Shown: positions 1 through 54,522 of the stretch, one piece after another
Position numbering within the stretch: position 1 is the first letter of the stretch
How the letters are laid out: every line of letters begins with the position of its first letter
NCBI GenBank assembly: GCA_030272155.1
Contig: CP126194.1
Coordinates: 1,302,001 to 1,366,000, forward strand
DNA: 64,000 nucleotides
Direction: 5' to 3'
Source of the DNA: Tetradesmus obliquus
Lineage: Eukaryota; Chlorophyta; Chlorophyceae; Sphaeropleales; Scenedesmaceae
The notes under the pieces: generated by a model
What the model saw: the letters and a program-made list of their open reading frames with translations, nothing else
Databases searched by the model: none
What the model was told of the DNA's origin: nothing
Translations under genes and position numbers: made by a program

Positions 1-1309
1 AAATGAGGATATGCAACCTCAGCAACTCACCCAGGTGCTTCACGCCCAGCTTGCCCTTGTCGTCCTTCATGCTGTCACACCACAACATACACAGATGAAA
101 CCGGATAAAAGATGTGCAATCTCAAAAACTCACCCAGGTGCTTAACGCCCAGCTTGCCCTTGCCGTCCTTCACCGCATCAAACTCATGTCACGATGACAT
201 CAAATGCAACACCATCATCACTCTACACCAACTCACCCAGGTGCTTCACGCCCAGCTTGCCCTTGCCGTCCTTCACCATGATATATCCCAACATCAACTA
301 CAATCAAATCATATTGAACTGCTGACCATATCAAACCACAATCACCGCTCACCCAGGTGCTTCACGCCCAGCTTGCCCTTGTCGTCCTTCATGCTGTAGA
401 AGGACACGCTGGGCCGCGCGCTGTCGCCGTGCACCAGCGCAAAGCGGTGGCCCTTGGGCTCCCACGCAAACGACAGCACCTTCTCGCTCTTGTTGGGCAG
501 CTCCAGCACCTGCAAGTGATGATGCAGCCACAAACATAAATTACGATGCTGTGCCGATGAGATGCAGTGGCGCAGAGGATGTCAAAGCTTGCAGGGGAAG
601 TCAGGCAAGTCAGGCAGACGCAGCGCAGCAGCCAAAGCCCACGCACACCAAAAAACTACTGTTGGGCGCACACAATCTGTGACTCGGCTGACATCAGCAA
701 GCACAGATATACAAACGGCTGGTAGCAACTGCGGCTGCAGCTGCAACAGCAACACAGTGTGGCACTCACGTCCATGGGGATGTCCTTCTCCCGGATGCTG
801 AACAACTCAAAGCCTGTGTAGGTGGACTTCTTGGTCTTGGTGAAGCGGTCCACCTTGACAGCAAGGTAGTCGCCCTGGGGGTGCCAGAAGATCTTCACGT
901 CTGCGCCAGTCAAAGTGACAAGTGACATGGTCAGATGATCAGAAATAATTGATGACTCCAGATGAGGACTAGTACAAGCTCAGCACTGGAGTGCCCTGTT
1001 GATGCATACGAGCTGCAGGATCACCTGCTCAACAATTCAATCAACAAAACAACGTATGCTGATGGCATCTCAGTGACCCCTGCAAATCTACAAGCATCTG
1101 GCAGCACATACACCAAATTAAACACACGATCCAACTTTGTAAGACGTTACTCACCGCTGACGTTGAAGAGCTGCTTGCTGCGCACGTTGGTGCGCTCCGG
1201 GATGCGGTACAGCGTGATGTTGGCGGGCCTGTCGCCCACCTCCTGCGTGTAGGCAGCCAGCAGCGGCTCCGCCGGGCTCCACTCAAAGTCCTGGTGGCGG
1301 CAGCAGCAA

Positions 1310-1342
<33 letters not shown>

Positions 1343-4300
1343 GGTGAGGCTACAACACTACCAGGCCTGCTACAGCTCCTTCCAAGTGTTGAACCCAATA
1401 GCAACACCAGGCAGATATCCCAGAGCAGCTCAACCTGCTACTCCTGCTACTCCCAAAGAAATAGGCGATCACGCCATGCCTGTGCAATCAACCAGCATTA
1501 ATCACCACGTCATGCGGCAGCCGCAGCATCCCCCTCTCACCTGCACGCCCTCCAGCTTGAGGTCCTTCTTGTCCATGAAGTTCAAATCAAGTACAACCGA
1601 GAAAGAAAAACCGCAAAACACATGGGCTCATCCCCCTCACACCTGCACTCCCTCCAGCTTGAGGTCCTGTATCAGTCAAATATCAGACACACCAGCTGCA
1701 GCTCTCGCACTGATAACAGCAGACCATCACGCACCTGCACTCCCTCCAGCTTGAGGTCCTTCTTGTCCAGCTGCGTCATCTCGGGCGTCTCGTAGATCTT
1801 GATGGCGCCCTTGGCCAGCCGCGCAAAGTACTTGTCCTCAAGACCGCCAGCCCACCTGCAGGTGAGGAGGTGCAGCAAGAGGTGCAAGGTGCTTAGGCCA
1901 GGTACACTTCCAGGTTCTGGATGTTTCGACTGAAAGGGCTGCTGTAGGTGCAGATTGCTTCGCAACAGCACAAGCACACACTGCACACTAGCAGCACGCA
2001 ACATTTCTAAAGGCCCGGCCACGCACTTGAAGATGGGCCAGCGCAGCGCGCCGCCTCTCCCTGCGCTGCTGCCTGTCACAGACCGCCCACTGAAAGCACA
2101 CACCGCACACAAGCAGGACGCAGCCATGATATGAACAACAACATGCCACGCACTTGAAGATGGGCCAGCGCAGCGCCCCTCCTGGCCCCGCGCTGCTGCC
2201 GATGGCGTAGTCCTCCATGTTGCCGCCAAAGATGCGCAGCTTCTTGCCGCTGCGCGTGTCAAACACGTTGAGCGCCACCTGCGGCAGCACGGTGAAAGGC
2301 AGAGTGTGTAAGTTATTATATACCAGACACGGCTATGCTTACCTGTACAGGTCGGAGGCGGCGTGCTGCTGTGTGTGCACATGCAGCTGTTGGCCGCATG
2401 CCCACAACAGCTTCATCAGCCGGAGTGCAATGCTGATCGCATGTACTCGTCATCACATGCAACTGCAAATCAACACTTGCAGAGCTGAAACCCACCCAGG
2501 TACCATCCCTAGCCATGCCAGCTGTACTCTTGCTCCTCTCACCTGCACCTTCTCCCGCGGGTTGGTGGGCTCAATGCTGCTGTAGGTCATGAGGTACTTC
2601 TCGGCCGGCGAGAACTCGATGAGCTGCACGTTCTGGTGGCTGTAGCGCGCCAGGCGCTGGAAGCTGGGCCCGCCCCACACTGCTACACCCTGCCTGTGCA
2701 TGGTGGCCAGGTAGTTGCCCATGGGAGACCTGCAGGCGAGCAAAGCAGCAGCACAACAGCCGGCGGTACATGAATGTCAACACGTTGGCAGCAGATATAT
2801 AAAGTTGCTGCTACACCCTGCCTGTGCATGGTGGCCAGGTGGTTGCCCATGGGTGACCTGCAGGCGAGCAAAGCAGCAGTACAACAGCCGGCGGCGCGAT
2901 ATGTCGACACTTTGGCAGCAAACATTGAGTTGCTGCAGCAGTCATTGGGTTGCTGCATAGTGGCCGGGCAGTCGCCCATGGGCGACCTGCAGGCTGGACA
3001 GATACGAGCAAAGAAAGCAGCACAACAGCTGGAAGCACAAAACATGGATTTCAGCAGCAAATGTTGATTGGATGCAGCAATCCTGTCCGCGTGTGATCTC
3101 AGGCAACAGCTGCTCCCACAGCACATCCTGAATAGCTTGTGCACGTCAAACCCCTCCTCAGTTGCTTTTGCTCTCTCTGCTCTCCCACCCAAAGCACCGT
3201 TGCAACCAATTCCCACTGTGCACAGACCCTGATAGGTTCTATGTTCCGCTATAAAAACACGCACCACTGCACGAAGGACTCTGTCCAGTAGGTGCGCTTG
3301 TAGGCCTCCTCGCTGCGGAAGCGCCTCCCATCATTCCACATGACCACCACCTCGTCGCCATACTTGATGGCAAACTGGTCACGCGACAGCTTGTCCAGCA
3401 TCCAGCTGTGCAGGTTCTCCTGCAGGCAGGCAACACAGGCATCAGGCCACAACGCAAAGGAACGTCACGGGCATAGGTCGAACAGCAGCCCGCATTGACA
3501 ACGTAGGTGACTGTCCAACTGTCGCGCAGCGCAGAACACAACCACTACGCTGGGAAAACTAATATGCAAGCAGTACAGCGGCTGCTCCAAGAAACAAGGC
3601 ACAACAAGGCACCCGCAAACTGGCACTTAACTGAACCCAACTGCCAGAAACTCCCTCACTCACCGCTGCGGAGTACTCCTTGATCTCTGGTGCCGCGTAC
3701 ACGTCCGGCACCTTTGCGTATCTGTCAAAGTCGTCAAACATGGACACCTTGAAGGTGTGGTTCTTGTCCAGCTTGTAGCCGTCAGTCTGCGCGCGAGCAG
3801 CCTGCGCCTCCTGTTGTCGTATCCCAGCATAACACCAACAGCAGATAAAACAGAAAGGCAGCGGAACGGCAAGCGTGAGGACAGCAAGCATCAGCATGCC
3901 AAACATGCCCTGCGATAGCTCTGCAGTGCAGCTGCTGCAAAGCAGGAGGCGTTGGGTGTGCGCAGGCTCGGCTGCACAACTGCCACACACTGCTGCGGAG
4001 GAGCCACACACTGCTGCGCCGTCCTAGGCTGCTGTCCTCATACCATGTGGTGTGAGCACTGGTGCTGTCAGCTCATCAACCAGACCGTTGCATGGTTGCA
4101 ACACTTGTTACTGCTACTGCTACTGCTGCTGCTGCTGCCGCTGCTCCTGCTGTTGCTGCTGCAGCTGGAAAAACAGCATGCCAGCCTGGCCCCGATGACT
4201 GGACTAGGCTGGTGCAGCATTGCCGCAGCTCGCTGGCTGGCTGTTTACTGCTGCACTTGCAGTTTCCACAGCTGCTGCTGCCATCATCACTGCTGCTGCT

Positions 4301-5385: not shown

Positions 5386-5944
5386 TGTGGTGAGCAATCA
5401 CAGCTTAGCTTGAAGTTGTTGATCAAGCAGACGCACGCACCGACAAGCAACGTGGGCGGCACACATGCTGCTTTGCGCGAACGAGCAGCTGTGTTACAAA
5501 GTCACCCGCCAAACTGCCTCTGTAATACCGGTGTTATCGGCACTAACACAGCAGTGTAGGCATCAGACACGTTTGATAAGATTGCATATCACGCACGCCC
5601 ACAAAGAGTGCTGGCATGAGTGTACTGCAGCTTGTACTTGCCCTTGCTGCCTTCTGGGACTCTCAGCCTGCCACAGTGCACACGAACGTAGGCTGGGCAC
5701 CTCATGTGCTCTGAGTACGTCAGAAGTTTTTGACATGGGTTGTGCAGCCTGCAGGCACAGGTGCAACGGTTGCTAGTAGTAATAGTACCAGTGCAAGCCG
5801 TGTCATCAGGCTACTAGCCTAGTAGCTACAGCCGGCTGGCCGCTGCCAGCAAGACGTGCACAAATGGCAAAAGCACAAAAAAACATGCAGGTTGGTACCC
5901 TGCACAGACACTCCTAGCGGATTTTCAAGGACTGCGGTCGCAGC
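5386..5944. other. Upstream region of eIF3b, up to the transposon
   Basis: About 560 bases between the eIF3b start codon and the transposon's left end. It should hold the eIF3b promoter and 5' leader. I see no coding exon, RNA gene or clear motif in it. The last 9 bases (5936-5944) are the left target-site duplication of the transposon. Confidence 0.5.
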
Positions 5945-21257: not shown

Positions 21258-21343
<86 letters not shown>

Positions 21344-38898: not shown

Positions 38899-41800
38899 AT
38901 GTCGGCGGCAGCGATCAACGTGATCCTGGAGAAGGTCAGCAGCGCACGTTCATGGTGTCTGTAGACTGCCCCGCCTGAGGATCCAGCAGTTGTTTCTGGT
39001 GGCTCGGGACACCCAGAGCTACACCCCCGTGACAGCGGTCATACTCTGCATGTGCAATGTTTTTTGATTTGTTCTTTTAGGTTGTGCCAGGCTTGCCATG
39101 CTGCTGCAACAGCAAGACGTGGCAGCAGCAGCGTCCATGGCAGCAGCACCCGCCACATGCAGCATCATGTACTTGACTTTTGATGTCAGAAAGCATCTCA
39201 GTTGTTAGTTCGTGGTTATGTCAGAAAGTATCTCAGTTGCTGGTTCGCTTCAAGGTTCAATGGGGTGCAATTATCGCAAGTCTGCAGCTGCACAGCATGG
39301 ACACGATCCTTGCACATGGTATGGCATCGTGCGCATTTTGTTGTACTGCTACTCCCTGCCTGACAGTCGCACTCACGAGTTGAATGCTTGGAACTGATCA
39401 TGAACATGCACAGGTGCGGCAAGCAGTTTCAGCATGCCATACAGCAAGCCTGCCTATGAACCAGCAAATGTAACAGGAGGCACTGGCTGGGCTGCTGCTG
39501 CTGCTGCAGGTGGCCTCCAAGGACAAGGACTTCCGTTACATGGCCACCTCTGACCTGCTCAATGAGCTCAGCAAAGACACCTTCCAGGTGACCAGCAGCA
39601 TCCAGCAGCAGCTAGGCAGCAGCAGCAGCAGCAGAGCTATCAGCAGCCTTACAGGCGTGCAGTGAGCAGCGCAGCAGCGTGCAGGCAGCAGGCATCACGA
39701 GACATATGCTCTTGCTGCTGTAAGCTGTCACTCCCAGGGTGGCCGCGCCAGCAGCAGGGAGTGCACGAGAGTTCTCTGGTGCTGCTGCATGGAACTGAGA
39801 ATTGCACAACCCCGTGCATCGCCTTGCAATAGCGCCAAGGAAGGCATTTCACTTGAAAGATCACATCAAAAGTAGCCTTCTCTCGTGCTGCCGCTTCATT
39901 TGACGCTTCATTAGACATGTGTTGACGTCATTGCTGGCACCTTGTGCTGTTATGTTGCTTGTTATTTCGTCATGTGTAGGTGGACCCTGAGCTGGAGCGC
40001 AAGCTGTGCAATGTGGTGGCAGTGCAGCTGGAGGACCAGAGCGGCGACATCTCAGGCCTGGCGGTCAAGTGGTGCGGCTGAGGGGTGGTAATGGTGCATG
40101 TGAAATGTAAACCCATACAACTGTAGGGACTGTAAAGCATGTCTGGGGCTGACGGTCAAGTGGTGCGCCTCGCAGCTGTCCTGGTGCAGTAGTAGTTAGC
40201 TTGTCATGACAGCAGCTGCTGCTGAGCTGCTGCTGATGCTCATTCGCAGCGTCTTGTTTGGTGCAAATATCACTGCAGCCGTGACACAAGTAATGCATGC
40301 ATTTGTGGCGGCAATACATGTTGGACACCAGCGTCGTCTCTTCGCCGTGTTTGATCTACTCTTCTTTGGTACTACGAAATAGGCAATCCTGGAAATGCAT
40401 ATCCCTGCTGCTGCCGCTGCTGCTGCCTGCTGCCTGCCGCAGCCTCGGCGTGTTGGTGCGCAAGGTTGGTGAGGCGCGCGTGATGGAGCTAGTCAAAGGC
40501 CTCTGCGAAAAGGTGGCGGCTCCCTCCAAGAAGGACAGCAGCAGCAGGGACATTGCGAGCATTGGCCTGAAGACAGTGATCGAGGTGGCGGGCGGCAGCC
40601 TGGCGCACCCTGCTGCTGCGCTGATCTGCAGCCGCATGCTGGACGGTGTGACGCAGAAGGTGAGGGGGTGCCGCTTGGAAGTATCAGTCTGGTGACAGTG
40701 AGAAAGTCAGTCAATCGACGCCCACTGGCTGGTGGGTTCTGCTGTACTTCACCCTACCTCCACAGCCATTGACCCTGCCTCCACAGCCGCTGATTTGCAG
40801 CTGCATGCTGGATGGAGTGATGCAGAAGGTGAGCGGGTGCTGGCAGGGTCGGAAGCCGCTGCCAACAGTTGCATGAGTTGATTCTGTTTGTACCCACAAA
40901 CCAGCAGAGCTGCTGTATTGCGGCCTGTTTAAACACTCGTCAAAAACTTTAGACTGGTGCTACTACTGACTCAAGCGATCAGTGGCTCTCAACGGATATG
41001 TTTTGTGTATCTCCTGCATGCGCTCTGCTGCTGTCAGGACAACTTTGAGGTGCTCACGGACAGCCTGGACATCCTGACTGACGTGGTGGCCAAGTTTGGG
41101 CACCTGCTGCCGGAGCAGCACGCCACCATCGTGCAGCTGCTGCAGCCATACCTGGACGACAGCAGGCAGGGCATCCGCAAGCGCGCGCTGCACTGCATAG
41201 GTGCGCACAGGTTGCAGCAGTTGGCTGAATGGGTGTGCATATAGCGGTTATCGTGTTCAGGTAGCAACAGCAGGCAGGGCATCCGCAAGCGCGCGCTGGA
41301 CTGCATAGGTGGGCATGCAGCATCAGTTAGCATGCTGATGTAGGAAACGTGGTAGTAGTGTTCAGGGAGCGACAGCAGGCAGGGCATCTGCAAGCGTGCG
41401 CTGCGCTGCATACGTGTGGCATGCGGCAGCTGTAGCGCTACTAACGTTGGAAACTGTGTTGTGTCCGTTTGTCCAATCTAACATGCGCTGCTGCTGCTGC
41501 TGCGGCGGCGGCTGCTGCAGGTGCGCTGTCGCCGTGCTTGTCGGATGCGCAGCTGGATGCAGTTGCTCAGCACAAGCTAGCTGGCTGCCATTGCACCTAA
41601 CATGTGCTGCTGCTGCTGCTGCTGCTGCGTGCAAGCAGGTGCGCTGTCTCCATGCCTGTCTGATGCGCAGCTGGATGCAGTGGCTCAGCACAAGCTGGGC
41701 CAGCTGAAGGGAGGCGCCCTCAAGCCCGACACAGCACGCAGCTATGTGCAGGGAGTGGGGGCACTCAGCAAGGCAGTGGGATACAGGTAAGCGTGGTTAG

Positions 41801-42636
41801 GACATCATGGTGTGTAGAGCCGACTGCTGAGTTGGCAGGTGTCGTTAGTGGGCAGTTGTTGTGTGTGGGCGCGCTCAGCAAGGCAGTGGGCTACAGGTGC
41901 GTGTTGCCGGTGCAAACATATGATTGTGCAAAGTGCAGGGCTGGCTGCTGGCCTTGCAAGGTGCTGTGTGTGTCACGTAGCAGTGCATGGCATGTCCTCG
42001 GTTTGCAGGACAAGCACATCGACAGCTTAGCACCTGAAAGCATGGTGTCAGGCGCTGGCACTGTAGGCCGCGCAACTGTCCAGCTGTGCAAACCTTGTGT
42101 CCCCGAGCACGCCTGCACCCCTTGCCTTGCAGGTTTGGCCGCCACCTGACCGAAGCGGTGCCGCGTATGATACAGTGCGGATAGAAGGCCGCATGCCTGT
42201 CCAGCTGTGCAAACCGTTGTGTCCCCGCTGCCGCCTGTGTGCCCGCAGGTTTGGCCGTCACCTGACCGAGGCGGTGCCGCTGATGGTGCAGTACGGCCAG
42301 AAGGCAGCGGAGGGTGATGATGAGCTGCGCGAGTATGCGCTGCAGGTGCGGGAAAGGGCTTTTTGTATCTGCAGTCAGGGGTGTTGCCTGAGGCCTAAAT
42401 GTAACATACATGGCTGTGAAGTGTGTGTGTTCAGCAGGCAGCAGAAGGAGATGAGGAGCTGCGCGAGTGTGCGCTGCAGGTACATGTGCAGGGTTGAAGA
42501 GGGCTCAACTGCAGCAGTACGTCATGGCTCATCGAGGATTGCGCACAGTGTTAGCAATGTTTTCAATTTGCGGGTGGTTGCTGGCAAGCCCAAAAATCTG
42601 GGGCGCAGCGAGTCTGCCTGCTGCAGCAGCATCCTT

Positions 42637-42668
<32 letters not shown>

Positions 42669-45600
42669 GCTTTTGGTGACACTGGTGTTATCGTACCTTT
42701 AGGCCTCCTGAGCTCACTAATTCGCATCTTCACTGACCGTGCTGCTGCTGCTGCTGCTGCTGCTGCTTCTGCTGCTGGCCAGGCGCTGGAGAGCTTTGTG
42801 TCGCGCTCGCCTGCTGATGCGCGGCCCTTCCTGGAGCAGCTGCTGGCGGAGGCGCTGCGCTACATCAAGTACGACCCCAACTACGGTGAGCATGCGGTTC
42901 CTCTGTTAAGGTTACACAGTGAAGCTGATGAACCATGAACCCATGAATGAAACTCTGAAAACCTAATAAGCCTGCGCTGAGCTGCTGTCAATGTACTGCC
43001 TTCCTTGAGTACTGCCCGCCTCACATACTGCCTCCCTTACAGACTGTCTGCCATATGTAATGCGTGTCTTGCGCATCGCCTGCCTTACGCACTTTCTTCT
43101 GCGCTGCCTGTCTGGTGTACTGCCTGCCTTCCCTCCTGCTGCTGCAGCTGCTGATGGCATGGATGAGGATGGCGGCAAAGCACCACACACACCTTAACTC
43201 ATGTGCACTGCCTGCCTTGAACGCCCCCTTCCCCCTGTGTGCTGCTGCAGCTGCTGATGACATGGATGAGGATGGTGGTGAGGGCAGCAGCGACTTCTCA
43301 CCTGAATTCACAACACTTGTCGTGTACTGCCTGCCTTGTACTGCCTCCCTGTGTGCTGCTGCAGCTGCTGACGACATGGATGAGGATGGTGGTGAGGGCG
43401 GCAGCGATGAAGACGATGATGATGGCAGCGAAGAAGAGTACAGCGATGACGAGGACATGAGCTGGAAAGTGCGCAGGTGAGGGTAAAGCCCGCGCACACA
43501 CTCCTCTGCGACAGCTGCACAACACTGGATGACTGAGAAATGCGTGCACATTAATGCTTTTGTTACGGCTGACCCTGTTGCGCTGCTGTTGCGCTGCCGA
43601 GTGCCTTTTTGCATTGCACCATGTCACTTGCTGCACTTCCCAAGTCCTTATGCTGTGTTACCTGCAGGGCTGGCGCCAAGCTGCTGTCTGCTCTGGGCTG
43701 TGCTCCTGCACAGCCTGCACTTGCTGCACTTCTCAAGTCCCCGTGCTATGTTGGCTATGCTGCAGGGCTGCTGCCAAGCTGCTGTCAGCGCTGGTGCACT
43801 GCTCGATTCGCACAGTGCCCATGCTGTGTCCGCCTCAGTTCCACCTGCTGTGTCCACTGTGCTGCAGGGCTGCTGCCAAGCTGCTGTCAGCGCTGGTGCA
43901 CTTCTGTAATTGCACAGCCTGCACTTGCTGCACTTCTCAAGTCCCCATGCTGTGTTGGCTGTGCTGCAGGGCTGCGGCTAACCTGCTGTCAGCGCTGGTG
44001 CACTGTTCGATTTGCAAACCGCTCATACTGTCTATGTCCTCTAGGTATCTTTGCTTTGATGGCCATGCTGCAGGGCTGCTGCCAAGCTGCTGTCGGCGCT
44101 GGTGCACGCCTACCCCGACCAGCTGGCAGACATCTACAGCAAGGCAGCTGGGGAGCTGGTGGCGCGCTTCCGGGAGCGCGAGGAGAACGTAAAGGCGGAC
44201 GTATTTGCAGCCTACTGCGACCTGCTGCGGCAGGTGAGGCGCTGCAGCTTCGTAGCTGTGCATGGGGGTAGTGGACGTTGCTATTTCTGTTGGGAGCGCG
44301 TTTGCCTCTACTGCGACCTGCTGGGGCAGGTCTCGTGGTGCAGTTTGGTCAGGGCGGCTATTTGCAGCAGCTGTTGTGTTGCGCACTCCTCCTGCAGGTT
44401 GGCTGCCGTGCACTCAGGTTTGACGGGCTTCACAGCTGCCCTTGCCACAGCAAGCCGTAGACGCGTGGATCGATTCCTGCGCCTCACTGTTGCCGCTGCC
44501 GCCGAAGGGCTTCTTAGACGATGGTGTCAGACCCGGTAACTGCCGGCCCTGCGGTCAGATCATCAAAGTGACAACTGCACTGGCCGTCGCTACAGCTGTT
44601 GTGACAGCTGTTGTGACACGTGGACGCACTCTTTGTGAGCCTTTTTACCTGTCATTGCTGCAGGTTGGCATCGTGTCGGGTCGCTATGATGCCACCGACC
44701 CTGCCAGCCCGCTGCAGCTGCTGCTGCGCGACGTGGGCCCCATGCTCAAGGCAGCAGCAAGGCAGCTGGCCGATAAGTCACCCAAGACTCGAATGGGCAT
44801 GTTCACTGTGCTGCGCACACTGGTTGGTGTGCTGCCGGGCAGCGTGGCCGACCATGTGGGCATGCTGGTGCCAGGTGGGTGTTATTTTGCCAGGTTGTTT
44901 CATGTTGTGAGTGGGTTGCAGCATTTCACACAAAGCTGCAGCATCCATGCAGCGTGGATGCTCGATGCATGGTTGTCGTTTTTGAATCTTCAAGACGCGC
45001 ATGGGCATGTTCACCGTGCTGCGCACACTGGTTGGTGTACTGCCAGGCAGTGTGGCCGACCACGTGGGCTTGCTGGTGCCAGGTGGGTGCCGCGCATTCA
45101 TCGTGTCGATTGTTGTTGTTGATCTTGTGTGGAAGCGGACTTCAATGGGCACTGTGCTGTGTGCACGCCGGTGGCGTGCGTCCAGGTGTGGCCGACCATG
45201 TGGGCATGCTCTGGTGCCAGGTAGGGTGGTGGTATGACCAAGGTAACCAGCGCCGTCAAGCCCTTACTGACTTGTGACACTTGATCAATAACTAGGTGCG
45301 ACAATGGCGTCATTGTGTCATCTTGTTACGATGAGGTGTTGCAAGTGAGTACGGGGTTGATGACGCTGGTTACCTTGGTCATACAACCACCCTGTCATCT
45401 TGGTGTGACATCTTGGCCATCATTGCCATGCTACCTTATTCTGTTTTCGAATTGCGCATGGGCATGTTTACAGTGCTGGCACGCTGGTTGGGTGCTGCCG
45501 GGCAATGTGACTGTGGGCATGCTCTGGTGCCAGGTAGGGTGGCTGTATGACCAACATGATCAGCGTCATCAAGCCCATACTATACTGCGGCAGCTCATCG

Positions 45601-48600
45601 AAGACAAGGAGGCATCATTGTTTCATCCACAGGATCCTGTGGATGAGACAATGATGCCATCTTGTCATTGTTAAGGTGTCGCAAGTGAGTACGGGTTTGA
45701 TGACGCTGTCATCTTGTTATGTCATCTTGGTGATGTCTACCATGGTACTTATGTCCATTCGTCCTTCCGCGCATGGGCATGTTCACCGTGTTGCGCTGGT
45801 TGGGTTGCTGCTGGGTAGTGTGGCCGACCATGTGGGCATGCTGGTGCCAGGTGGGTACAACAATCGTCAATACGATATTGGGATAGCAGTGAACTTCTAA
45901 GCGGTGTTTATGGGAGAGCAAGGGCAGCATGTACTTGGGAGGCACCGTTTGCAGTCGCTGAGCCGGCCACAACTCGCAATGCGAGTAGTTGCTGACTCAA
46001 CTGACTGCAATTTGCGCCTCCAAGTACATGCTGCACTTGCTCTTGGGGAGGGAGGACTGCAGCATTCATTAAGCTTGGTGAGCCAGCAGTTGCCTGATAT
46101 CACTGGCTGTGTGTCCTCTTGAAACATAAATTTTAAAAGTGTATTCAGTGCTGGCATTCCGCACGGCTGCGTCTCCTGGCCTCCTTTTTGCTGTCCCAAA
46201 ACAGCAGACCATCCTGCTGGCGTGCAAGGACAAGTCAGCCAGCAGCAGCTGCCTCAACTTCTATTGTAGGCTGGAGCAACGTTACAGCATGAATTGTATG
46301 GTGCTTCAATGCCATTCATGCCATTCTGTTTCGTTGTGCTTCCCATCAAAATGCTGTTGCACGTGGCTGCTGTCCCTACTTTCTTCTCTTGCAGGCATCC
46401 TGCTGGCCTGCAAGGACAAGTCGGCCAGCAGCAGCAGCCTCTAAGCTGCTGTAGAGGTTATGTTTGACTCTGTTTCCCGCTGCAACACTGCCGCGCATGG
46501 TTGCTGTCCCTACATTCTCTGCCGCAGGCATCCTGCTGGCCTGCAAGGACAAGTCAGCCAGCAGCAGCAGCCTCAAAATCGAGGCGCTCACATTCCTGCG
46601 GGCTGCCATGGAGAGCAACGCGCCCCCAGTGTTCCAGCAGCACGTTGCACAGCTCAGCAGCGGCGTGTTTGCGGCAGTCGGGGAGCGCTACTACAAGGTG
46701 AGGGTTGAGGGTTTGAGCAAGGCTGCACACACCTGCAGCAGCGCCTGACAGCTGGTGCAAGTACAGCTGCGCAGCGGCGTGTTTGCGGCAGTGAGGGAGC
46801 GCTACTACAAGGTAGGCGCCTGCACACAGCAGCGCTTGTTCAGCTGCCGGGACATAGAATAACGTGTGCTACCGAGTCACTCACTTAATGATTTACATGC
46901 TTGCGGCAGTGGGGGAGCGCTACTACAAGGTGGATCGGTTGCGCTGTTTAGCAGTGCCTCACATAAGAACTTGATAGGTGTGTTGAAGCGCGTCCTCGGC
47001 ACCCTTTTTGTCAGAGCACTGTTCAACACTCACCCTATTGAAGCTAAAACAGCGCAGCTGCGCGTGAGCTGAAATCATGTGTACATGTCTGTACATGTTT
47101 GCAGGTCGCCGCCGAGGCGCTGCGGGTGTGTGAGCAGATGGTGTCAGTCATCCGGCCCAACCCGCCCGCCCCAACAGCCCCCGAGCTGGCGCCTGTTGTG
47201 GCTGGCATGTTCTCCTGCATCAATGGGCGGCTGGCAGCACAGGACCAGGACCAGGAGGTCAAGGAGTGTGCAATTTTGTGCATGGCTCATCTGGTGGCAA
47301 CCTGTGGGGACCTGCTGTCAGCTGAGGTGCGTTGGCTGAGGCAGCATTCTTCATTTGTAGCTATATTCTGGGCTCGAGGCGGCAGAGAAGGCCAGGAGGT
47401 CAAGGAGTGTGCAATCCTGTGCATGGCTCATTTGGTGGCAACTTGCGGGGACCTGCTGTCAGCTGAGGTGGGTTGGCTGAGCCGGCATGCTTCATAGTTA
47501 GGCATGGGCTCGAATGTGCAGAGAGAGCCAGGCGGTCACGGAGTGTGCTATTTTGTGCATGTCCCATTTGGTGGCAGCCTGCGGGGACCTGCTGTCAGCT
47601 GAGGTGCTTGTCAAGGCAGCATACATTACATTTAGTTAGGGGCTTGAGCGTGCAGACAAGATCGGGAGGTCAATCGGGCACAATGAGTGTGCCATCCTGT
47701 GCATGGCTCATTTGGTTGCAACCTGCGGGGACCTGCTGTCAGCTGAGGTGGGTTGGCTGAGTCAGCGCAACAGGAGGAGCAAGTGCCTGGTGTGCTGAAG
47801 CTGCTGCTGTTGCTTCTGCGCAGCAAGATCACCCTCGTAACCATCATCACAAATTAACAATCATCGTGTGCTGCAGGTCGCTGGCATGCTGAAGCTGCTG
47901 CTTGTCAATTGTAAACAAGCAAGTGGTTGTCAGCGACAATTGCAAACAAGCAAGTGGTTGTCAGCGACCCAGACAATGATATCACTCCACTATCGCCACC
48001 ATGATTCATGCTCAGCATCACATCGTCTGCTGCAGGTGCCTGGTGTGCTGAAGCTGCTGTTGGAGCGGCTGCGCAACGAGATCACCCGGCTGTCCGCTGT
48101 GAAGGGCTTTGCCATCCTGGCCCACTCTCAGCTGGAGCTGGGGCTGGACGGCGCACTGGAGCCGGTCATTGTGAGTGCGGCTTTCTTCACAGTTGGTTTC
48201 ACACAGCGAACGCAACACTTTGCATTCATACAGGCTGGGAACAGCCTGGTGGCACAGTACTGCAGCTGGCACCACAAGATAGGGAGTTTGTGAGGCTGTG
48301 AGTGGATCAGGTTTGAAGTTGAGCACGCAGTTGCAGCTGGAGCTGGGGCTGGACAGCGCACTGGAGCCGGTGATTGTGAGTTGGTGCCTGCTTGCAACCT
48401 TGTTTGTTTGTACAAAAACAGTTCAAGCTGTTTGTCCTATGCATCTACAGCTCTTCAATGATAGCCTGGTGGTGCAGCATCACAGCTGGCAGCATATCAA
48501 GAGAATTGCACGGTGCTGGGTGGGTGCTGGGAACAGCCGGAATCTCCCAAGCAGCGCTCATCAACCCTTGCACCACATCACTGGCCATTTTTGCTGCCTT

Positions 48601-51600
48601 GCAGGCACCGTGTGATGCCGCTTGCCACACCTGCAACTCCACAGGACCATTTCACTCACCCTCTCGTTTGCTTGCCGCATATTATACCTCACAATCTCAC
48701 CAACAGGCTGAGCTCACCAGCTTCCTGCGAAAGGCCAACCGCCTGCTGCGCCAAGCAGCATTGGCAGCTTTAGAAGCCTTGGTAGCCAAATACGGCCCAT
48801 CCCTGGATCCTGCAAGCACCAGCGCGCTGCTGGCTGAGTCATCAAGCCTCATCAGTGACGCTGACCTGTCAATTGCGGCGCTGAGCCTAAAGCTGGCGGT
48901 GACGCTGCTGCGGCAGCAGCCGGCAGTGGCGCAGCAGGTCGTGGAGCGGGTGCTGCCTGCTGGGCTGGTGCTGGTGCGCAGCCCGCTGCTGCAGGTGAGA
49001 AAAGATATGTTATGGTTTGGCGAGGGCAGCGTGTAAAACGAAAGCAAACCTGACGCGGCCGCCTTTGGGAGCAGTGCTGATGCGCTGGCAACCTGCAGAT
49101 GGTACATGGGGGCATGAACCATTTCGTGAGCGTATGCACCTGTGTGGTGGAGCGGGCGCGGCCTGCTGTCCTGGTGCTGGTGCGCAGCCCGCTGCTGCAG
49201 GTGAGCGCGACTGGCTTATGTATACTGGGGTAGCGTGGTGGCGTGCTGGTACTCTTGGTGCTTTGTTGGAGCAGTGCGGATGCTGCCTGCTGGGCTGGTG
49301 CTGGTGCGCAGCCCGCTGCTGCAGGTGAGGGTGAAATGTATGTTAGGGTTTGGTTGGGGCAGCGTGGTTGCGTGCAGGCGTGCGGGATGAAAGCATTTTT
49401 GAGGCCAACACGGATGCACCCTGTGTGAGCAGTGCTGATGCGCTGGCGATTTGCAGATGCTGCAATGAGGGCATGATCCATTTTGTGAACGTATGCACCT
49501 GTGCATGGGAGCGGGTGCTGCCGGCAGGGCTGGTGCTGGTGCGCAGCCCGCTGCTGCAGGTGAGAAAAGTTCTGATATGGTTTGGCAAGCGTGCAGATCA
49601 AAGCAAATCTGAGGCGGCGAGAATGCACTCTGTGCGAGCAGTGCTGGTGCGCTAGCGGTCTGCAGGTGCTACATTGAGCATGATCTGTTATGTGAGCGTA
49701 TGCACCTGTGTAGTGGAGCGGGTGCTGCCGGCAGGGCTGGTGCTGGTGCGCAGCCCGCTGCTGCAGGTGAGACAAGTTTTGATGTGGTGAGGCAGCATGG
49801 TCGCGTGGCAGGCGTGAAGGATGCAAGTTTGTGAAGCGAGGATGCTGTTGGTTGGAGCAGTGTTGATGCGCTGCCCGAGTCTGCAGCTCAGGTTCTGTGC
49901 ACGTGCCATTTGAATGCATGCAGTTTTGTAATAAAGCAATGGCATGTTTGTTTTGCCCATGCCAATCAACCTGTATAGCGCTCTCTTACTCTTCCACCAA
50001 CCGCGTTTGACCGTCGTTTGACCGTCGTTATTGTGCTGCATGTAACGCGTGCAGGGTGCAGCGCTGGCGGAGCTGCAGGCGCTGTTCCCGGCCCTTGCAG
50101 GAACAGGCTCCCCAGCAGCCAAGACAGAAGCACTACTGTCAGCACTGCTCGATGAGGGCAGGGGCAGGCGGGACGGCGGCGGCAGCACAGACGGCAGCGC
50201 ACGGCAGGCCCAGCACAGCGTGGCGCAGTGCTGTGCGGTGCTGGTGGTGCCGGCTGGGCAGGCGCAGGTGGATGCAACCGTGAAGCAGCTGCTGCAGATG
50301 CTCAAGTCAGCAGACCAAGGTGGGTGAATTTGGTGGTGGTTGTGGGCTATGCATGCAGCTGCAGGCAATGGAAGGAACAGGTGGCTGCTGTTTGCTGTGT
50401 GTATGGCGGAGGTTCTGCTGCTGTCTGTGCCAAGGATAGATTGCAGCACACCCACTCGTGTACCTGCCCGCCTGTTGCTTTGGCATGTAGTAACCTACCC
50501 TCTGTCTGCCTGCTGATGTGCCTTGTCTTGCAGCCTCCCAGCGGCTAGCGCTGCTGTGCCTAGGAGAGATCGGCCGTCGCACAGACCTCTCATCAGCGCC
50601 TAACGTTGAGTCAGCAGTCAACGCCTCCCTCAGCTCTGAGAATGAGGACATCAGAGCAGCAGCAAGCTTGGCTCTGGGTGGCGTGGCATGTGGCAACCTG
50701 GGGCGCTTCCTGCCGGCGCTGCTGCAGAGCATTGAGGGCGCTAGCGGGCAGAGCAAGCAGCAGTACCTGCTGTTGCAGGTGCGTTGACTGGTCAGCGCGG
50801 GGCTGGCAGCTGCAAGTAATGCGCCACTTCGACCTATTCAGGCCACTCCACCTGTATGTACAGAGCAGGGCACTGTTGATGTTGGGCAGGATGTTGCCTT
50901 TACACGTTTGTGCCGCCACTGCAGTGCTTCATGTATGTTCAGACGTTCAGATAGGCGTGGGCGGTGTGATCATGTTTGACCCTTGTGACTCACGAGCTGT
51001 CTCTTTGGCTGCTGCTGTTTCCTGCAGGCGCTGAACGAGGTGGTGACCACCGTCAGTGCACGCAAGGCAGCAGACACGCGGGCAGGCTTCACAGAAGGTG
51101 TGTGAGGGGCAGTAGCTTTCATCTATTTGTACGTGTAGTGTGTTGTTGACGAAGGGATTGCATATGAATGCATGCAAGCAGGATAGCGATACATGCCTGT
51201 TGTGTGTCTGCTGTTCCTTGCATGTCGTGTGCCTGCTGTTCCTTGCATGTCAACTGCCACATGCTGCCTCGCAGCCACGCCATGCATGCACAGCAGGCGT
51301 CTCAAAACTGTTGGTGCACACATCACATGCTGTCTGGCTCATGTCTGCTCGCTGCTGCTGTGTTGCTGCTCTTTTGTGCTCTCCTGCAGCGCAAGTGCAG
51401 CAGGTGCTGGACCTGCTGGTGTCCTGCAGCAGGGCAGAGGAGGAGTGCAGGAACGTGGTGGCGGAGTGCCTGGGGCGGCTGGCGCTGCTGCACCCCTCAG
51501 AGGTGCTGGCGCGGCTGCGCACAGGTGCGGAGCCGCGCTGTTGTATGCTGCTGCTGCCATTCAATGTGTGGACGCTTGCTGTTGTATGTATGTGCTGCTG

Positions 51601-53842
51601 TGCCTGACAGAGATGTTCTTATGCCTGCGCACATGCCCGCACAGACAGCTGCCGTTGCGTGGGTGCTGCTGTTGCGGCTTGACGCTTGACTGCGTGTACG
51701 TGCTTGCTGCGCTGCCTGCTGCAGGGCTGTCGAGTGACAGCGAGCACACGCGCTGCGTGGTGGTTGGCGCTGTCAAGTACATGGTGGTGGACAAGCCACA
51801 CCCAGTGGATGACCTGCTCAAGGTGCGTGCAGAACATTGGGACGCCTGCATCCGCGATTACTTTTTTTGCAGCTGCACCGTTAGTCTGGTGCTGTCAAGT
51901 ACATAGTGGTGGACAAGCGCCGCCCAGTGGATGACCCGCTCAAGGTGAGGCGCAATAACTGTGCAGCACAAAGTGCAGTGCAACACATCATCATATGTGT
52001 GCCACCATGTTTTGCTGCAACCAGGACAGGTGCTCGCTGCTTCTGCGTGTCATGCCACATGCAGGTATCAACATCAGTGTTGCCATGCCGCTTACAGATA
52101 ATAACATCACAAGCGCCTGCATCTGCGTTTGAATGTGTTATAACACTGTTACTTTTCTCCTGCAGGACTGCCTGCTGGACTTCCTCATGCTGATGAAGGA
52201 CCCAGACCGGCACGTGCGCAAGGCGGCAGTGGTGGCGCTGTCTGCTGTGGTGCACCACAAGCCGGGCCTGGTGGCTGCTGGGCTGGAGCAGCTGCTGCCT
52301 CTGCTGTACGACCAGACAGCAATCAAGCCAGAGATGGTGCGTGGTGAAACTACTGTCTCTGTGGTGTGCCAGCTGCTGCCTGTCCATCTGAAATCTGTCA
52401 TCAGCTCAAGTTGCTGCTGGTTGGTTGGCTTCTATGCTGCACCTGGCTTGCCATGTGCCCTGCATTCTTTTTCCCTCCCCCTTCCTCACCCGGTCAAACT
52501 CTGGTCAAACATGCAGATCCGCACGGTTGACCTGGGCCCCTTCAAGCACCGCATCGACGACGGCCTGGAGCTGCGCAAGGCTGCCTTCGAGTGCCTCGAC
52601 ATCCTGCTCACGGCGCTGCCACACGTGCTGCAGCAGCAGCCGGACTTTTTGGCAGCGTTGGAGAGTGGGCTGAAGGACCACCAGGATGTGAAGGCGCCTG
52701 CACACCTGATGCTGGTCAAGCTGGCAGCAAGCCCAGGTGGGGTCGGATAAGAGCAGCTGCCTGCATAGTTGTGCGTGAAGCGTGTCAGACCTGGTGGATA
52801 TGTGAACCTGAGGTGGTGGTTGTTGCAGTGGCTGTTGAGTTTTGGCGTGTCCTGTGTCATGCTCAGGCATGCAGAAGCAGCAGCAGCAGCTGAACGGGCT
52901 GGCAACAGCCTCCAAGTATATTAAATTGCCTTTCTTGTTTGTCAAAATTCGTCACATATTCATGCTACAGGTGGCGGCCCCGCTGTGCTGAGCCAGCTGG
53001 GCAAACCGTGACAGCCAATGTGACTGTGTTCATTGCATTCGTGTGCTGCACTGCTGTTGCCCAGTCTGCAGGCGGCGGCCCTGCTGTGCTGAGCCAGCCG
53101 GACAAGCCTTGAGGCCAATACAATCACTTAAATCCTTGTGCTGTACCGTTGCTGTACTGTGCTGCAGGCGGCGGCCCTGCTGTGCTGAGCCAGCTGGACA
53201 AGCTGGTGGAGCCGCTTGAGAAGACGCTCACCGCAAAGCTCAAGAGCGACGCAGTCAAGCAGGAGGTGCGGCGGCAGCCACATTGATTACACTTGTTGCA
53301 TGACTGTGATGTAAACGGAAAGTTTTGATGTGTCCGCCATAGGGCGGGTTGTGGTGCAGCTGCTGGTTGACTTGCATGGCAACCGGCTGCAGCAGAAGTG
53401 GATTTGACTTGCTGGGATGGATACAGTGCAGATGCTGCAAGCAGAGCAGCGGGTGCCTGCAGGAATGCACACAGGCGCCTGCTGCATGACAACAACATTG
53501 CCTCAAGACTTTGCAGCTGCTAGTCCTGCTTGAACTCAGCATCCTCAGCACACGCGTCATCTGTTTCTCAACTCACCATCAGCACTATTCTTGCAGCCCA
53601 GGTTCAAGTCTGTCAAAGTCAATTGGTCAAACATGTGGTCCGCGCAGGTTGACCGCCACGAGGAGCTGCTGCGCAGCTGCCTGCGCGCCGTGGACGCGCT
53701 CAACCGCCTGCCAGGCAGTGAGGCCAGCGCCCCCTTCACAGGCTTCCTGAAGCGCACTGTTATGAGCGGACCGCTGCGGGAGAAGTTCCTGGCGGCACAG
53801 GCGGAGCGGCAGGAGGCAGAAGGCGAGGCAATGGAGCTGTAA
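38899..53842 (+). CDS. CAND1: Cullin-associated NEDD8-dissociated protein (CAND1/TIP120)
   Basis: HEAT-repeat protein that binds un-neddylated cullin-RING ligases and exchanges their substrate receptors. 24 exons with matching phases: 38899-38934, 39510-39587, 39980-40071, 40443-40659, 41038-41200, 41639-41786, 42249-42345, 42783-42885, 43365-43476, 44074-44233, 44664-44874, 46528-46697, 47105-47326, 48036-48170, 48707-48994, 50055-50319, 50534-50778, 51028-51097, 51390-51524, 51725-51822, 52166-52336, 52517-52736, 53168-53265, 53648-53842. Product 1,242 residues, the family length. Key blocks: DKDFRYMATSDLLNEL, DISGLAVKCLGVLVRKV, DIASIGLKTVIE, acidic DEDMSWKVRRA, ERLRNEITRL, RNVVAECLGRLALL, GPFKHRIDDGLELRKAAFEC, LVEPLEKTL, ending GEAMEL. 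No frame defects. Nearly every intron contains echoes of neighbouring exon edges, so alternative junctions are possible. Confidence 0.95.
40145..42485 (+). repeat. CAND1 exon-edge echoes, exons 3-7
   Basis: Donor-side copies: exon 3 end (LAVK) at 40145-40172; exon 4 end (ICSCMLDGVMQK) at 40788-40832; exon 5 end (SRQGIRKRAL-CI) at 41262-41312 and 41366-41420; exon 6 end (ALSKAVGYR) at 41867-41899; exon 7 end (DEELRECALQ) at 42436-42482. Acceptor-side copies: exon 6 start at 41511-41581, exon 7 start at 42126-42190. Each copy retains the AG or GT of the splice site. Confidence 0.85.
43140..44012 (+). repeat. CAND1 acceptor-side echoes of exons 9 and 10
   Basis: Exon 9 start (AADDMDEDGGEG) is copied at 43140-43176 and 43244-43290. 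Exon 10 start (CTGCAG then AAAKLLSALVH) is copied four times, beginning near 43668, 43764, 43864 and 43967, before the true start at 44074. This is a regular ~100-base tandem array, each unit with its own acceptor. Confidence 0.88.
45224..45392. repeat. Long imperfect hairpin in CAND1 intron 11
   Basis: Arms 45224-45286 and 45330-45392 are reverse complements at roughly 83% over about 63 bases, with a perfect core GCTGGTTACCTTGGTCATA. The loop is about 43 bases. It could form foldback DNA or a double-stranded RNA stem in the intron. Confidence 0.8.
45535..45735. repeat. Second hairpin with inner palindrome, CAND1 intron 11
   Basis: A diverged duplicate of the preceding hairpin (arms near 45535-45576 and 45692-45730) encloses a palindrome centred on GGATCC at 45632-45637. 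Its arms 45603-45634 and 45635-45666 match at 29 of 32 positions. The hairpin was evidently duplicated together with the exon 11 echoes. Confidence 0.75.
46200..47757 (+). repeat. CAND1 exon-edge echoes, exons 12-13
   Basis: Exon 12 start (ILLACKDKSASSS) is copied upstream at 46200-46260 and 46392-46443. Exon 12 end (SGVFAAV-ERYYK) is copied downstream at 46770-46812 and, shorter, 46903-46930. Exon 13 end (QEVKECAILCMAHLVATCGD...) is copied downstream at 47391-47470, 47527-47605 and 47678-47755, the last three carrying 75-80 exon-derived bases each. Confidence 0.88.
47783..48378 (+). repeat. CAND1 exon-edge echoes of exon 14
   Basis: Exon 14 start (VPGVLKLLL) recurs at about 47785-47830 and 47877-47903 upstream; its end (QLELGLD-ALEPVI plus donor) recurs at 48337-48377 downstream. 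A separate 31-base tandem duplication (AACAAGCAAGTGGTTGTCAG) lies at about 47911-47965. Confidence 0.82.
49143..49770 (+). repeat. CAND1 donor-side echo array of exon 15
   Basis: The exon 15 end coding ERVLPAGLVLVRSPLLQ plus CAG|GTGAG donor is repeated near 49145-49203, 49272-49328, 49506-49563 and 49713-49770, after the true end at 48994. Exon-derived parts are nearly identical, while intron parts, though related (a recurring GATATGGTTTGG-like motif), have drifted and changed length. Confidence 0.9.
51884..51950 (+). repeat. CAND1 donor-side echo of exon 20
   Basis: Exon 20 end (GAVKYMVVDKPHPVDDLLK) is copied at 51884-51946 as a near match with one in-frame stop (TAG in place of ATG) and a GTGAGG donor. 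The true exon ends at 51822. Confidence 0.85.
52970..53112 (+). repeat. CAND1 acceptor-side echoes of exon 23
   Basis: Exon 23 start (GGPAVLSQLDK) with upstream CTGCAG/CTACAG acceptor is copied at about 52970-53010 and 53071-53111, before the true start at 53168. Spacing is close to 100 bases. The two copies gain a stop just after the copied part. Confidence 0.85.
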
Positions 53843-53873
53843 GTAACAGTTCAAACTGACAGCTCGCAGCGCT

Positions 53874-54522
53874 GTGAGGCTTCCTGAAGCGCACAGTCAT
53901 GAGCGGACCGCTGCGGGAGAAGTTCCTGGCTGCGCAGGCGGAGCGGCAGGAGGCAGAGGGCGAGGCGATGGAGCTGTAAGCAGAAGTTGTAGAACGAACG
54001 TGTCGCAGTGCTTGGGGGCTGTCTGGAGCGCAGCAGTGGCCGGAGCGCTGCAGTTCCTGGCAGCACAGGCGGAGCGGCAGGAGGCAGAGGGCGAGGCCAT
54101 GGAGCTGTAAGTGACAGTTCAAACTGACAGCTCGCAGCGCTGTGAGGCTTCCTGAAGCGCACCATGATGAGCGGACCGCTGCGGGAGAAGTTCCTGGCGG
54201 TACAGGCAGAGCGGCAGGAGGCAGAGGGCGAGGCAATGGAGCTGTAAGTAACAGTTCGAACTGACAGCACGCAGCGGTTTGCGGCTTTCTGAAGCGCACC
54301 GTGATGAGCGGGCCGCTGCGGGAGAAGTTCCTGGCAGCACAGGCGGAGCGGCAGGAGGCAGAGGGCGAGGCCATGGAGCTGTAAGTGACAGCTGTCAGTA
54401 ACGGTCAGAGCAAGTGGCATCACTTTACTCGAGCGCAGCAATGGCTGCGTCGCTGCAAGACAAGTTCCTTGCGTCGCAGGCGGAGCTGCAGGAGGTGGAG
54501 GGCGAGGCATTGGGGCTGTGAC
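53874..54522 (+). repeat. Five-unit echo array after the CAND1 stop
   Basis: The terminal coding block GFLKRTVMSGPLREKFLAAQ, AERQEAEGEAMEL is repeated at about 53874-53980, 54005-54110, 54143-54247, 54283-54383 and 54425-54521. The last copy is most diverged. Four of the five copies end like the original in GAGCTGTAAG, which is both a stop codon (TAA) and a near-consensus donor (GTAAG). Confidence 0.9.

What the first reader, a model, noticed from the sequence alone, without database searches (positions are those of the whole stretch)
1..54522. Pervasive exon-edge echoes: introns carry partial copies of neighbouring exon ends with their splice sites
In eIF3b, delta-tubulin, the hydrolase, RbcX and CAND1, introns contain 1-5 extra copies of ~30-100 bases from the adjacent exon edge plus the splice site. 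Geometry is consistent: exon 3' ends are echoed downstream, exon 5' ends upstream, always same orientation, often at ~100-140-bp period. At least 20 exon edges are affected. Known related idea: tandem duplication across an AGGT site can create introns, but multi-copy echoes on this scale in one genome segment are not something I know described. Genes in the same window with fewer or shorter introns (BTB, TLC, jacalin-like) and the transposon genes lack them. Possible readings are a duplication-driven route of intron growth or creation, or decoy/alternative splice sites. Echo locations are seen; mechanism is inference.
Basis: partly seen in the sequence, partly recalled or inferred. Interest (0 to 1): 0.88.

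Follow-up and report, generated by a model that had tools for sequence, protein, structure and literature searches.

The report
Exon ends copied into algal introns
In the green alga Tetradesmus obliquus, many introns carry extra copies of the end of the neighbouring exon together with its splice site, which lengthens introns, offers possible alternative splice sites, and is not fully explained by random duplication followed by decay.

Summary
The echoes are real. The genome is Tetradesmus obliquus or extremely close. In three genes with homology-checked exons (CAND1 and eIF3b in the window, GSH1 elsewhere) all 28 local repeat arrays touch an exon edge; random placement predicts 50-71%. I count 23 echoed edges in the window. 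Donor edges are echoed downstream (57 of 61 echoes), acceptor edges upstream (48 of 53). Twenty stretches across the 17 contigs show the same. Repeat offsets are rare below 95 bp and peak at 110-120 bp.

Two results exceed random duplication. Homology often stops at the splice consensus: of 49 echoes with at least 93% exonic identity, 55% have an unrelated intron side, against 11-21% in simulations. In four multi-copy arrays, exonic blocks differ less than spacers in all 21 echo-to-echo pairs, two of them only slightly. Codon positions show no clear coding constraint once CpG is considered. Three public T. obliquus protein models, aligned here, use echoes.

Best reading: recurrent local duplication across exon edges, plus short-patch exchange that refreshes blocks from the exon, lengthens introns and supplies decoy or alternative sites. 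The refreshing step is inferred. Against it: exon-masked repeats show no edge bias. No transcript reads or sister genomes were available.

The parts
39507..53842 (+). CAND1 gene, 23 exons; host of most echoes
   Evidence: spliced alignment with human CAND1 recalled from memory and with P0003 and P0004 (21 of 23 exons identical for each, differences only at the two ends); T. obliquus P0002 99% identical
40788..40828 (+). echo of CAND1 exon end 40659 with donor (offset 169)
   Evidence: 87.8% over 41 nt, reaches the splice edge
41267..41412 (+). two echoes of exon end 41200 (41267-41308 and 41370-41412)
   Evidence: 97.6% and 93.0%
41521..41578 (+). echo of exon start 41639 with acceptor
   Evidence: 91.4% over 58 nt, flank TGCTGCAG
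41865..41896 (+). echo of exon end 41786 with donor
   Evidence: 90.6% over 32 nt
42133..42192 (+). echo of exon start 42249 with acceptor
   Evidence: 83.3% over 60 nt
42432..42479 (+). echo of exon end 42345; 42438-42479 is a 14-residue mini-exon in public T. obliquus protein P0002
   Evidence: 87.5%
43148..43293 (+). two echoes of exon start 43365 with acceptor
   Evidence: 89.3% and 95.3%
43766..44003 (+). three echoes of exon start 44074 with acceptor
   Evidence: 97.1%, 97.1%, 88.2% over 34 nt
44308..44349 (+). weak echo of exon end 44233 with donor near 44329 (offset 96)
   Evidence: not found in the BLAST
44991..45850 (+). four echoes of exon end 44874 (44991, 45145, 45455, 45770), each followed by GT
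   Evidence: 77.5-91.3%
46210..46444 (+). two echoes of exon start 46528; the farther one has lost the AG
   Evidence: 95.8% and 96.0%
46763..46929 (+). two echoes of exon end 46697 with donor
   Evidence: 91.8% and 93.8%
47392..47747 (+). three echoes of exon end 47326; donor 47467 is used in public protein P0001
47783..47900 (+). two echoes of exon start 48036; the one at 47783 has lost the AG
48334..48375 (+). echo of exon end 48170 with donor
   Evidence: 95.2% over 42 nt
49144..49766 (+). four echoes of exon end 48994 (array E14); blocks 91-98% identical to the exon, spacers 22-51% different
51887..51944 (+). echo of exon end 51822 with donor
   Evidence: 89.7% over 58 nt
52971..53107 (+). 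two echoes of exon start 53168
   Evidence: 93.8% and 97.2%
53880..54519 (+). five echoes of the CAND1 coding end (array E23); the stop also reads GT-AAGT
1541..1668 (-). two echoes of eIF3b exon end 1735 (echo donors at 1643 and 1541)
   Evidence: eIF3b exons from P0129 and P0130
2027..2073 (-). echo of eIF3b exon end 2154 with donor at 2027
2808..2994 (-). two echoes of eIF3b exon start 2729 (acceptors at 2857 and 2986)
28170..28341 (-). two echoes of a tubulin-family exon end at 28457, each followed by GTGGG; a 27-nt block is identical in the three copies
   Evidence: read by eye

Best explanation
This genome duplicates short stretches in place, with units of about 95-160 bp. Where a unit spans the border between an exon and an intron, the extra exon edge with its splice site lands in the intron and is normally skipped, because the outermost donor and acceptor keep the reading frame. 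The extra copies lengthen the intron and remain splice-competent, so some may be used as alternative donors or mini-exons. After duplication, the exon edge and its echoes keep exchanging short patches (gene conversion or template switching), probably anchored by the constrained exon and the shared splice-site consensus (CTGCAG|GTGAG-like). Blocks therefore stay similar and end sharply at the splice site while intron spacers drift apart. Shown: the echoes, geometry, edge bias, scarcity of short units, sharp boundary, discordant block and spacer similarity in two arrays, and use of three echoes in public protein models. Inferred: the patch-exchange step and its anchoring.
For: 28 of 28 arrays in three genes with homology-based exons at exon edges, null means 0.50-0.71; with ab initio exons, 62 edge vs 7 non-coding genic arrays, null 57%, neutral simulation 38-47%. 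45 of 105 echoes keep intron-side similarity above the 99% control level, as a DNA duplication should. Few units below 95 bp in both edge and non-coding repeats (some 'non-coding' ones lie on missed exons). Of 49 echoes with exonic identity of at least 0.93, 55% have intron identity under 0.60, against 11-21% in eight simulation settings that model donor edges; real donors alone 59% of 27. In four multi-copy CAND1 arrays, chosen for their copy number, exonic blocks differ less than spacers in 21 of 21 echo-to-echo pairs; in E14 0-12% vs 26-51%. Copies recombine: in E14 blocks 3 and 4 are identical although spacer 3 is closer to spacers 0 and 2; in E23 the 31-nt spacers of copies 0 and 2 are identical while their blocks differ at 12 of 92 sites. 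Non-CpG echo-to-echo differences are 8.9, 5.6 and 9.6% at codon positions 1-3, not the pattern of coding constraint. Edges with AG|GT on the exonic side are somewhat more often echoed: 31/42 vs 93/163 and 11/30 vs 36/187, each p 0.053, combined p 0.019.
Against: When exons are masked and repeats are found by non-coding similarity alone, the 42 genic arrays are not closer to exons than chance (within 30 nt 33% vs null 40%); over all territory there is a small excess (27% of 74 vs 18%) (threshold 22). Patch exchange should also homogenise donor positions +4 and +6, which differ in 37% and 35% of echoes while +5 differs in 12%; that favours selection on splice sites or independent splice sites. 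In E23 copies 2-3 and E10 copies 2-3 the block/spacer contrast is small (15% vs 16%, 23% vs 30%), and E23 spacers of copies 0 and 2 are identical. The ratio of synonymous to other codon changes, exon to echo, is 1.15 against 0.38-0.91 in neutral runs, which I attribute to CpG but which could mean some constraint. Where the exonic side has AG or GT, the opposite-site score is not higher at echoed edges (0.72 vs 1.15; 3.95 vs 4.49), and true-site scores do not differ clearly (p 0.058 and 0.11). No sister genome or read data show an exchange event.
Confidence: 0.45

Rival explanations
1. Passive null: random tandem duplications arise everywhere; those inside exons are purged, those spanning an edge are tolerated, and they look exon-specific only because the coding copy cannot drift.
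For: It predicts the geometry automatically. Only 6 of 345 repeat segments have both copies coding. Echo block length and offset show no preference for multiples of three. Echo-to-echo codon positions are flat at non-CpG sites. Exon-masked repeats in genes show no edge bias.
Against: A neutral simulation with the same detection gives 38-47% edge arrays, observed 90%; 28 of 28 in genes with homology-based exons. My 'non-coding' count is inflated, since a tubulin-family array counted there sits on a missed exon edge. The sharp drop at the splice site is stronger than simulated and is present between echoes, where coding constraint cannot act. Intron substitution and indel rates in the simulations are assumed.
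Confidence: 0.2
2. Selection keeps echoes as working splice sites: decoys, back-up sites or stepping stones for stepwise removal of the intron.
For: In echoes whose intron side is unrelated, GT is intact in 25 of 31 and AG in 19 of 21, and the scores of the intact ones lie on average at the 83rd and 76th percentile of intronic GT/AG sites. Differences avoid +1, +2, +5 and -1 to -3 but not +4 and +6 (same trend in genes with homology-based exons). Public T. obliquus models use three echoes.
Against: Little or no excess of an opposite splice site at the inner end of echo blocks (donor echoes 0.32 vs 0.25, acceptor echoes 0.06 vs 0.15). Only 3 of 21 donor echoes in the three genes can be read through in frame. 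9 in-frame stops in echo codons, up to 3 of them where the exon itself has its stop, against 12-14 in neutral runs: not clearly depleted. 93% identity over 30-100 nt is more than known splice signals need (general knowledge). The public models may be computer predictions.
Confidence: 0.22
3. The introns were created by tandem duplication of an exonic AG|GT segment (Rogers model) and the echoes are the remains.
For: Weak excess of AG-ending and GT-starting exons at echoed edges, combined p 0.019.
Against: In the arrays read, donor echoes are followed by a further GT consensus and more intron, not by the next exon. Intron age was not testable.
Confidence: 0.07
4. Assembly artefact.
For: Tandem copies can be mis-assembled (general knowledge).
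Against: Most spacers between copies in the four arrays examined are 22-60% different. Public T. obliquus proteins contain the same echo peptides, P0001 and P0002 with one residue changed each, and P0124 comes from a contig of another length (6749178 vs 6747500).
Confidence: 0.01
5. A mobile introner-like element or other dispersed repeat.
For: Dispersed elements are reported to create introns in bulk (PMC9860276, search listing with start of abstract only).
Against: Each echo copies its own exon edge; the E14 region finds only itself in the genome (1 match; one region tried).
Confidence: 0.02

Closest known systems
Tandem duplication crossing an intron-exon boundary in a potato RdRp gene (PMC4974935; abstract and introduction read)
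   Same: A genomic duplication spanning one exon edge carries splice signals and changes splicing.
   Different: One case that created a new intron; here many edges in many genes, often several copies each, and no new intron shown.
Rogers/AGGT model of intron gain by exon duplication (described in PMC4974935 and PMC2891723; introduction and passages read)
   Same: Splice-site-containing segments duplicated in tandem.
   Different: The AGGT model duplicates a segment inside an exon; here the unit spans an existing splice site and the echo stays within an existing intron.
Internal tandem repeats at exon-intron boundaries in human segmental duplications (PMC2812944; passages read)
   Same: Repeats at exon borders that alter splicing, kept in or spliced out.
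   Different: 27 intron modifications in recent human paralogs; here conserved genes (CAND1 found once), similar blocks with diverged spacers, and presence across one algal genome.
Cryptococcus CNN00420 repeat expansion (PMC2395259; passages read)
   Same: About 107-nt repeats that include exon ends and vary in copy number.
   Different: Those repeats contain a full intron and add introns; here no added intron is shown.
Introners (PMC9860276; search listing with start of abstract only)
   Same: Genome-scale change in intron content.
   Different: Introners are dispersed copies of one element; echoes are local copies of each exon's own edge.

Membership tests
Tandem duplication across an exon-intron boundary | direct repeat, same strand, neighbouring copy, spanning the edge | tested here: met
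   donor echoes downstream 57 of 61, acceptor echoes upstream 48 of 53
Tandem duplication across an exon-intron boundary | both sides of the edge are duplicated | tested here: inconclusive
   45 of 105 echoes keep significant intron homology; 55% of the 49 most similar echoes have an unrelated intron side
Rogers/AGGT intron gain | AG|GT inside the exon before duplication; intron equals the duplicated unit | tested here: not met
   echoes lie inside longer introns (298-1653 nt) and donor echoes are followed by their own GT and more intron; echo offsets are 92-300 nt
Rogers/AGGT intron gain | intron absent in relatives | not testable with these tools
   no related eukaryotic genome DNA was available
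Introner elements | near-identical sequence shared by introns of many genes | tested here: not met
   the E14 array region, the one region tried, matches only itself in 104.66 Mb (simple repeats are skipped by that search)
Tandem exon duplication / mutually exclusive exons | whole exon with both splice sites duplicated | tested here: not met
   blocks are mostly 26-79 nt of one edge and the inner end shows little or no excess of an opposite splice site; one echo is nevertheless a mini-exon in P0002
Functional alternative splice sites | used in transcripts | tested here: inconclusive
   used in three public protein records, whose transcript support is unknown

The most novel reading that the evidence does not exclude
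Tetradesmus obliquus has an ongoing copying process that recognises exon edges themselves: short exon-end blocks are repeatedly written into, or refreshed within, neighbouring introns with the copy ending at the splice consensus. This would make introns grow out of their own exons and supply each gene with a ladder of ready-made alternative splice sites. The splice consensus would serve as the anchor for template switching, or the process would be templated by RNA.
Probability: 0.25. Interest if true: 0.92.

Novelty: new variant of a known kind. Interest (0 to 1): 0.74.

Why it matters
How introns grow and how alternative splice sites arise are long-standing questions usually studied from single or ancient events. 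Here one accessible alga shows the process at many stages: in the sample 43 of 212 donor edges and 32 of 220 acceptor edges carry a recognisable echo, and almost half of CAND1 intron sequence lies in such arrays. If blocks are being refreshed or selected, it would be a new kind of link between splice sites and local DNA copying. It also matters in practice: public gene models of this species already contain echo-derived peptides.

Tried and rejected
Default BLAST self-hits gave an apparent period floor at 100 bp; because BLAST can suppress near-diagonal hits (my knowledge) I replaced it with my own offset scan, which kept a rise from about 95 bp. First ab initio gene models over-predicted tiny exons and were retuned; even then echoes were sometimes called as exons, so 200 of 438 predicted exons that were echo-like or weak were dropped before counting, and key tests were repeated in genes with homology-based exons. 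GSH1 was taken for that because its locus is rich in arrays; CAND1 and eIF3b are genes of the window. Locus L024 was left out of the repeat counts because it is a long satellite. Two pairs of tubulin loci overlap and are counted twice in total length. I first suspected coding constraint on echoes from the third-position excess (7.8, 5.9, 16.4% differences); it is mostly a CpG effect. Mini-exon structure of echoes in general was rejected. Some alignments align a stretch with itself because the compared windows overlapped; they were ignored, and part of that output was cut. Echo as a dispersed repeat was rejected. Literature: in ten searches no listed title or abstract start described this pattern in Tetradesmus or elsewhere; only open-access PMC papers are covered.
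Full report
What was tested. The window is C4:1302001-1366000 of a 104.66 Mb, 17-contig genome. The CAND1 protein read from it is 99% identical to a public Tetradesmus obliquus record and 95% to one of Scenedesmus sp. NREL 46B-D3, so the organism is T. obliquus or extremely close.

The observation. TRF lists nine separate arrays of period 96-141 bp, each longer than 200 bp, in the window. Self-comparison shows same-strand copies of exon ends in the adjoining introns. Exons of CAND1 were set by spliced alignment to a human sequence recalled from memory and confirmed by alignments with proteins of two relatives, which reproduce 21 of 23 exons each and differ only at the two ends. Querying up to 100 nt of each CAND1 exon edge against the gene gives 43 matches outside the exons; 37 pair an edge with an echo on the expected side, of which 33 reach the edge base exactly and 4 stop within 2 nt, and the other 6 are echoes hit by the query of the opposite edge of a short exon. 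My count from that listing: GT follows all 20 donor echoes and AG precedes 10 of 12 acceptor echoes (5 more are stop-codon echoes). Counting CAND1 (19 edges including the stop codon), eIF3b (3) and a tubulin-family exon (1), 23 edges are echoed in the window.

Genome-wide. Twenty 10-kb stretches on the 17 contigs, eight tubulin-search loci and the window were scanned, 280 kb without the satellite locus L024. A mismatch-tolerant scan finds repeats concentrated at offsets of 100-160 bp, with 0 at 60-70, 5 at 70-80, 5 at 80-90, 12 at 90-100, 27 at 100-110 and 40 at 110-120, and almost none beyond 1000 bp (threshold 24). Repeats that do not touch predicted exons show the same rise, so it probably reflects the duplication process rather than splicing constraints alone; some of those lie on missed exons, as one search shows for one. 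With self-trained gene models, 72 of 107 arrays include an exon edge, 31 are non-coding and 4 are coding in both copies; in genic territory 62, 7 and 4. Random placement that forbids doubly coding positions predicts 57% edge arrays in genic territory, against 90% observed, and none of 300 trials reached that. Per edge, 43 of 212 donors, 32 of 220 acceptors, 3 of 10 stop codons and 1 of 4 start codons are echoed. One of those stops (window 342) is a gene-model error, because eIF3b continues beyond the window edge, and the start (54304) lies inside the CAND1 stop-codon array.

Check with homology-based exons. The three genes have 4 (eIF3b), 6 (GSH1) and 18 (CAND1) arrays, all 28 at exon edges; null means are 0.71, 0.50 and 0.59, a joint chance of about 3e-7 if arrays are independent. 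Sixteen of 38 donors and 9 of 38 acceptors are echoed in that listing, which lacks the 48994 donor found. Repeat arrays cover 5102 of 10640 intron bp in CAND1, 1309 of 3345 in GSH1 and 655 of 3505 in eIF3b. Introns with an echoed edge are longer (median 438 vs 264, p 0.00086).

Is it only decay of random duplications? A random duplication across an edge should show intron homology as well as exon homology. 45 of 105 echoes do, and some alignments show the whole unit. But position by position, exonic bases differ in about 9-10% of exon-echo pairs, donor +1/+2 in 9%, +3 in 19%, +4 in 37%, +5 in 12%, +6 in 35%, and from +7 in 39-68%; acceptor -1 to -3 in 0-6%, -4 in 15%, then 33-69% from -5 outward. 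The genes with homology-based exons show the same trend. Simulated neutral duplications at donor edges, passed through the same detection, give a gentler step. Among real echoes with at least 93% exonic identity, 55% of 49 have intron identity below 0.60 and 20% at or above 0.75 (donors alone: 59% and 7% of 27), whereas eight simulation settings give 11-21% and 56-66%. The step persists between echoes, where no coding constraint acts, although echoes were found by their exonic similarity. In four multi-copy arrays chosen for a close look, blocks differ less than spacers in 21 of 21 echo-to-echo pairs; in E14 by 0-12% against 26-51%. The contrast is small in E23 copies 2-3 (15% vs 16%) and E10 copies 2-3 (23% vs 30%), and many E10 and E12 spacers are barely alignable. 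In E23 and E14, block similarity and spacer similarity disagree about which copies are closest, which points to exchange between copies.

Results against a strong claim. When exons are masked, non-coding repeats in genes are not closer to exons than chance (33% vs 40% within 30 nt among 42 genic arrays); over all territory there is a small excess (27% of 74 vs 18%). Third-position excess in echoes is mostly a CpG effect, although the synonymous share of codon changes (1.15) exceeds the neutral runs (0.38-0.91). Echo block lengths and offsets show no reading-frame preference, and inner ends of echoes carry little or no excess of the opposite splice site. Only 3 of 21 donor echoes can be read through in frame. 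The simulation parameters for intron substitution and indel rates are assumed, not measured.

Are echoes used? Public T. obliquus CAND1 record P0001, aligned to this genome, reads through the ordinary donor at 47326 to the echo donor at 47467, adding 47 residues; P0002 includes the echo 42438-42479 as a 14-residue mini-exon. GSH1 record P0124 uses an echo donor 147 nt downstream, while a Scenedesmus acutus record (P0121), one relative (P0122), two records that look transcriptome-derived by their names (P0123, P0128) and the other T. obliquus record (P0126) use the ordinary one. Whether the T. obliquus models rest on transcripts is unknown. Two of the three in-frame open read-throughs in these genes are exactly those found in public records, which is also what a gene predictor would do. 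In echoes with unrelated intron sides, GT is intact in 25 of 31 and AG in 19 of 21.

Extent beyond the detection limit. For edges without a detected echo, the 8-mer at the splice site recurs in the adjacent 400 nt in 12 of 163 donors and 26 of 187 acceptors, against 2 and 0 for the reversed sequence; reversed sequence is an imperfect control, but it suggests more, older echoes.

Explanation. I judge most likely that recurrent local duplications of about 95-160 bp create the echoes, and that short-patch exchange between exon edge and echoes, anchored by the constrained exon and the splice consensus, keeps the blocks similar. Selection for splice-competent echoes is the strongest rival, because the interleaved conservation at +3 to +6 is hard to get by exchange. 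Plain neutral duplication explains geometry and tolerance but not the edge fraction or the sharp boundary.

Relation to known work. Single cases of duplication across an exon edge creating an intron (PMC4974935), tandem repeats at exon borders altering splicing (PMC2812944), AGGT-type intron gain (PMC2891723) and repeat expansion of introns (PMC2395259) are described. In ten full-text searches of open-access papers no listed title or abstract start described multi-copy exon-edge echoes across a genome. A paper on Scenedesmus acutus phytochelatin synthase reports intron retention and exon skipping (PMC12899622; passages read); the passages seen do not mention echoes. A Scenedesmus obliquus genome paper was seen in passages only (PMC7590803); it has no occurrence of 'tandem' or 'intron' in its main text.

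Noticed in passing
5941-8623 and 61317-64000: 2.68-kb direct repeat, 99.96% identical, one copy reaching the end of the window, with a 145-bp piece also at 54593-54737 (95%); looks like a recent mobile element.
   Followed up: no
24496-27246 (+): 917-codon open frame whose start reads like a reverse transcriptase (recalled motif, not searched), lying between two tubulin-family matches on the other strand at 23607-23747 and 28385-28591: possibly a retroelement inside a tubulin-family intron.
   Followed up: no
45223-45393, 45552-45716, 45915-46043: Imperfect palindromes of about 130-170 bp in the CAND1 intron after exon end 44874, next to the echoes.
   Followed up: no
48855-49985 (-): 377-codon antisense open frame running across the E14 echo array.
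   Followed up: no
L024:16-3959 and 4115-6039: Satellite arrays of 279-bp (14 copies) and 345-bp units at C16 about 1.0 Mb.
   Followed up: no
L001:668-3183: A tubulin locus on C7 with five TRF arrays of period 111-249 bp within 3.3 kb.
   Followed up: partly
L026:2627-2959: Perfect 137-bp tandem array (100% matches, 2.4 copies), apparently very recent and useful for reading duplication junctions.
   Followed up: no
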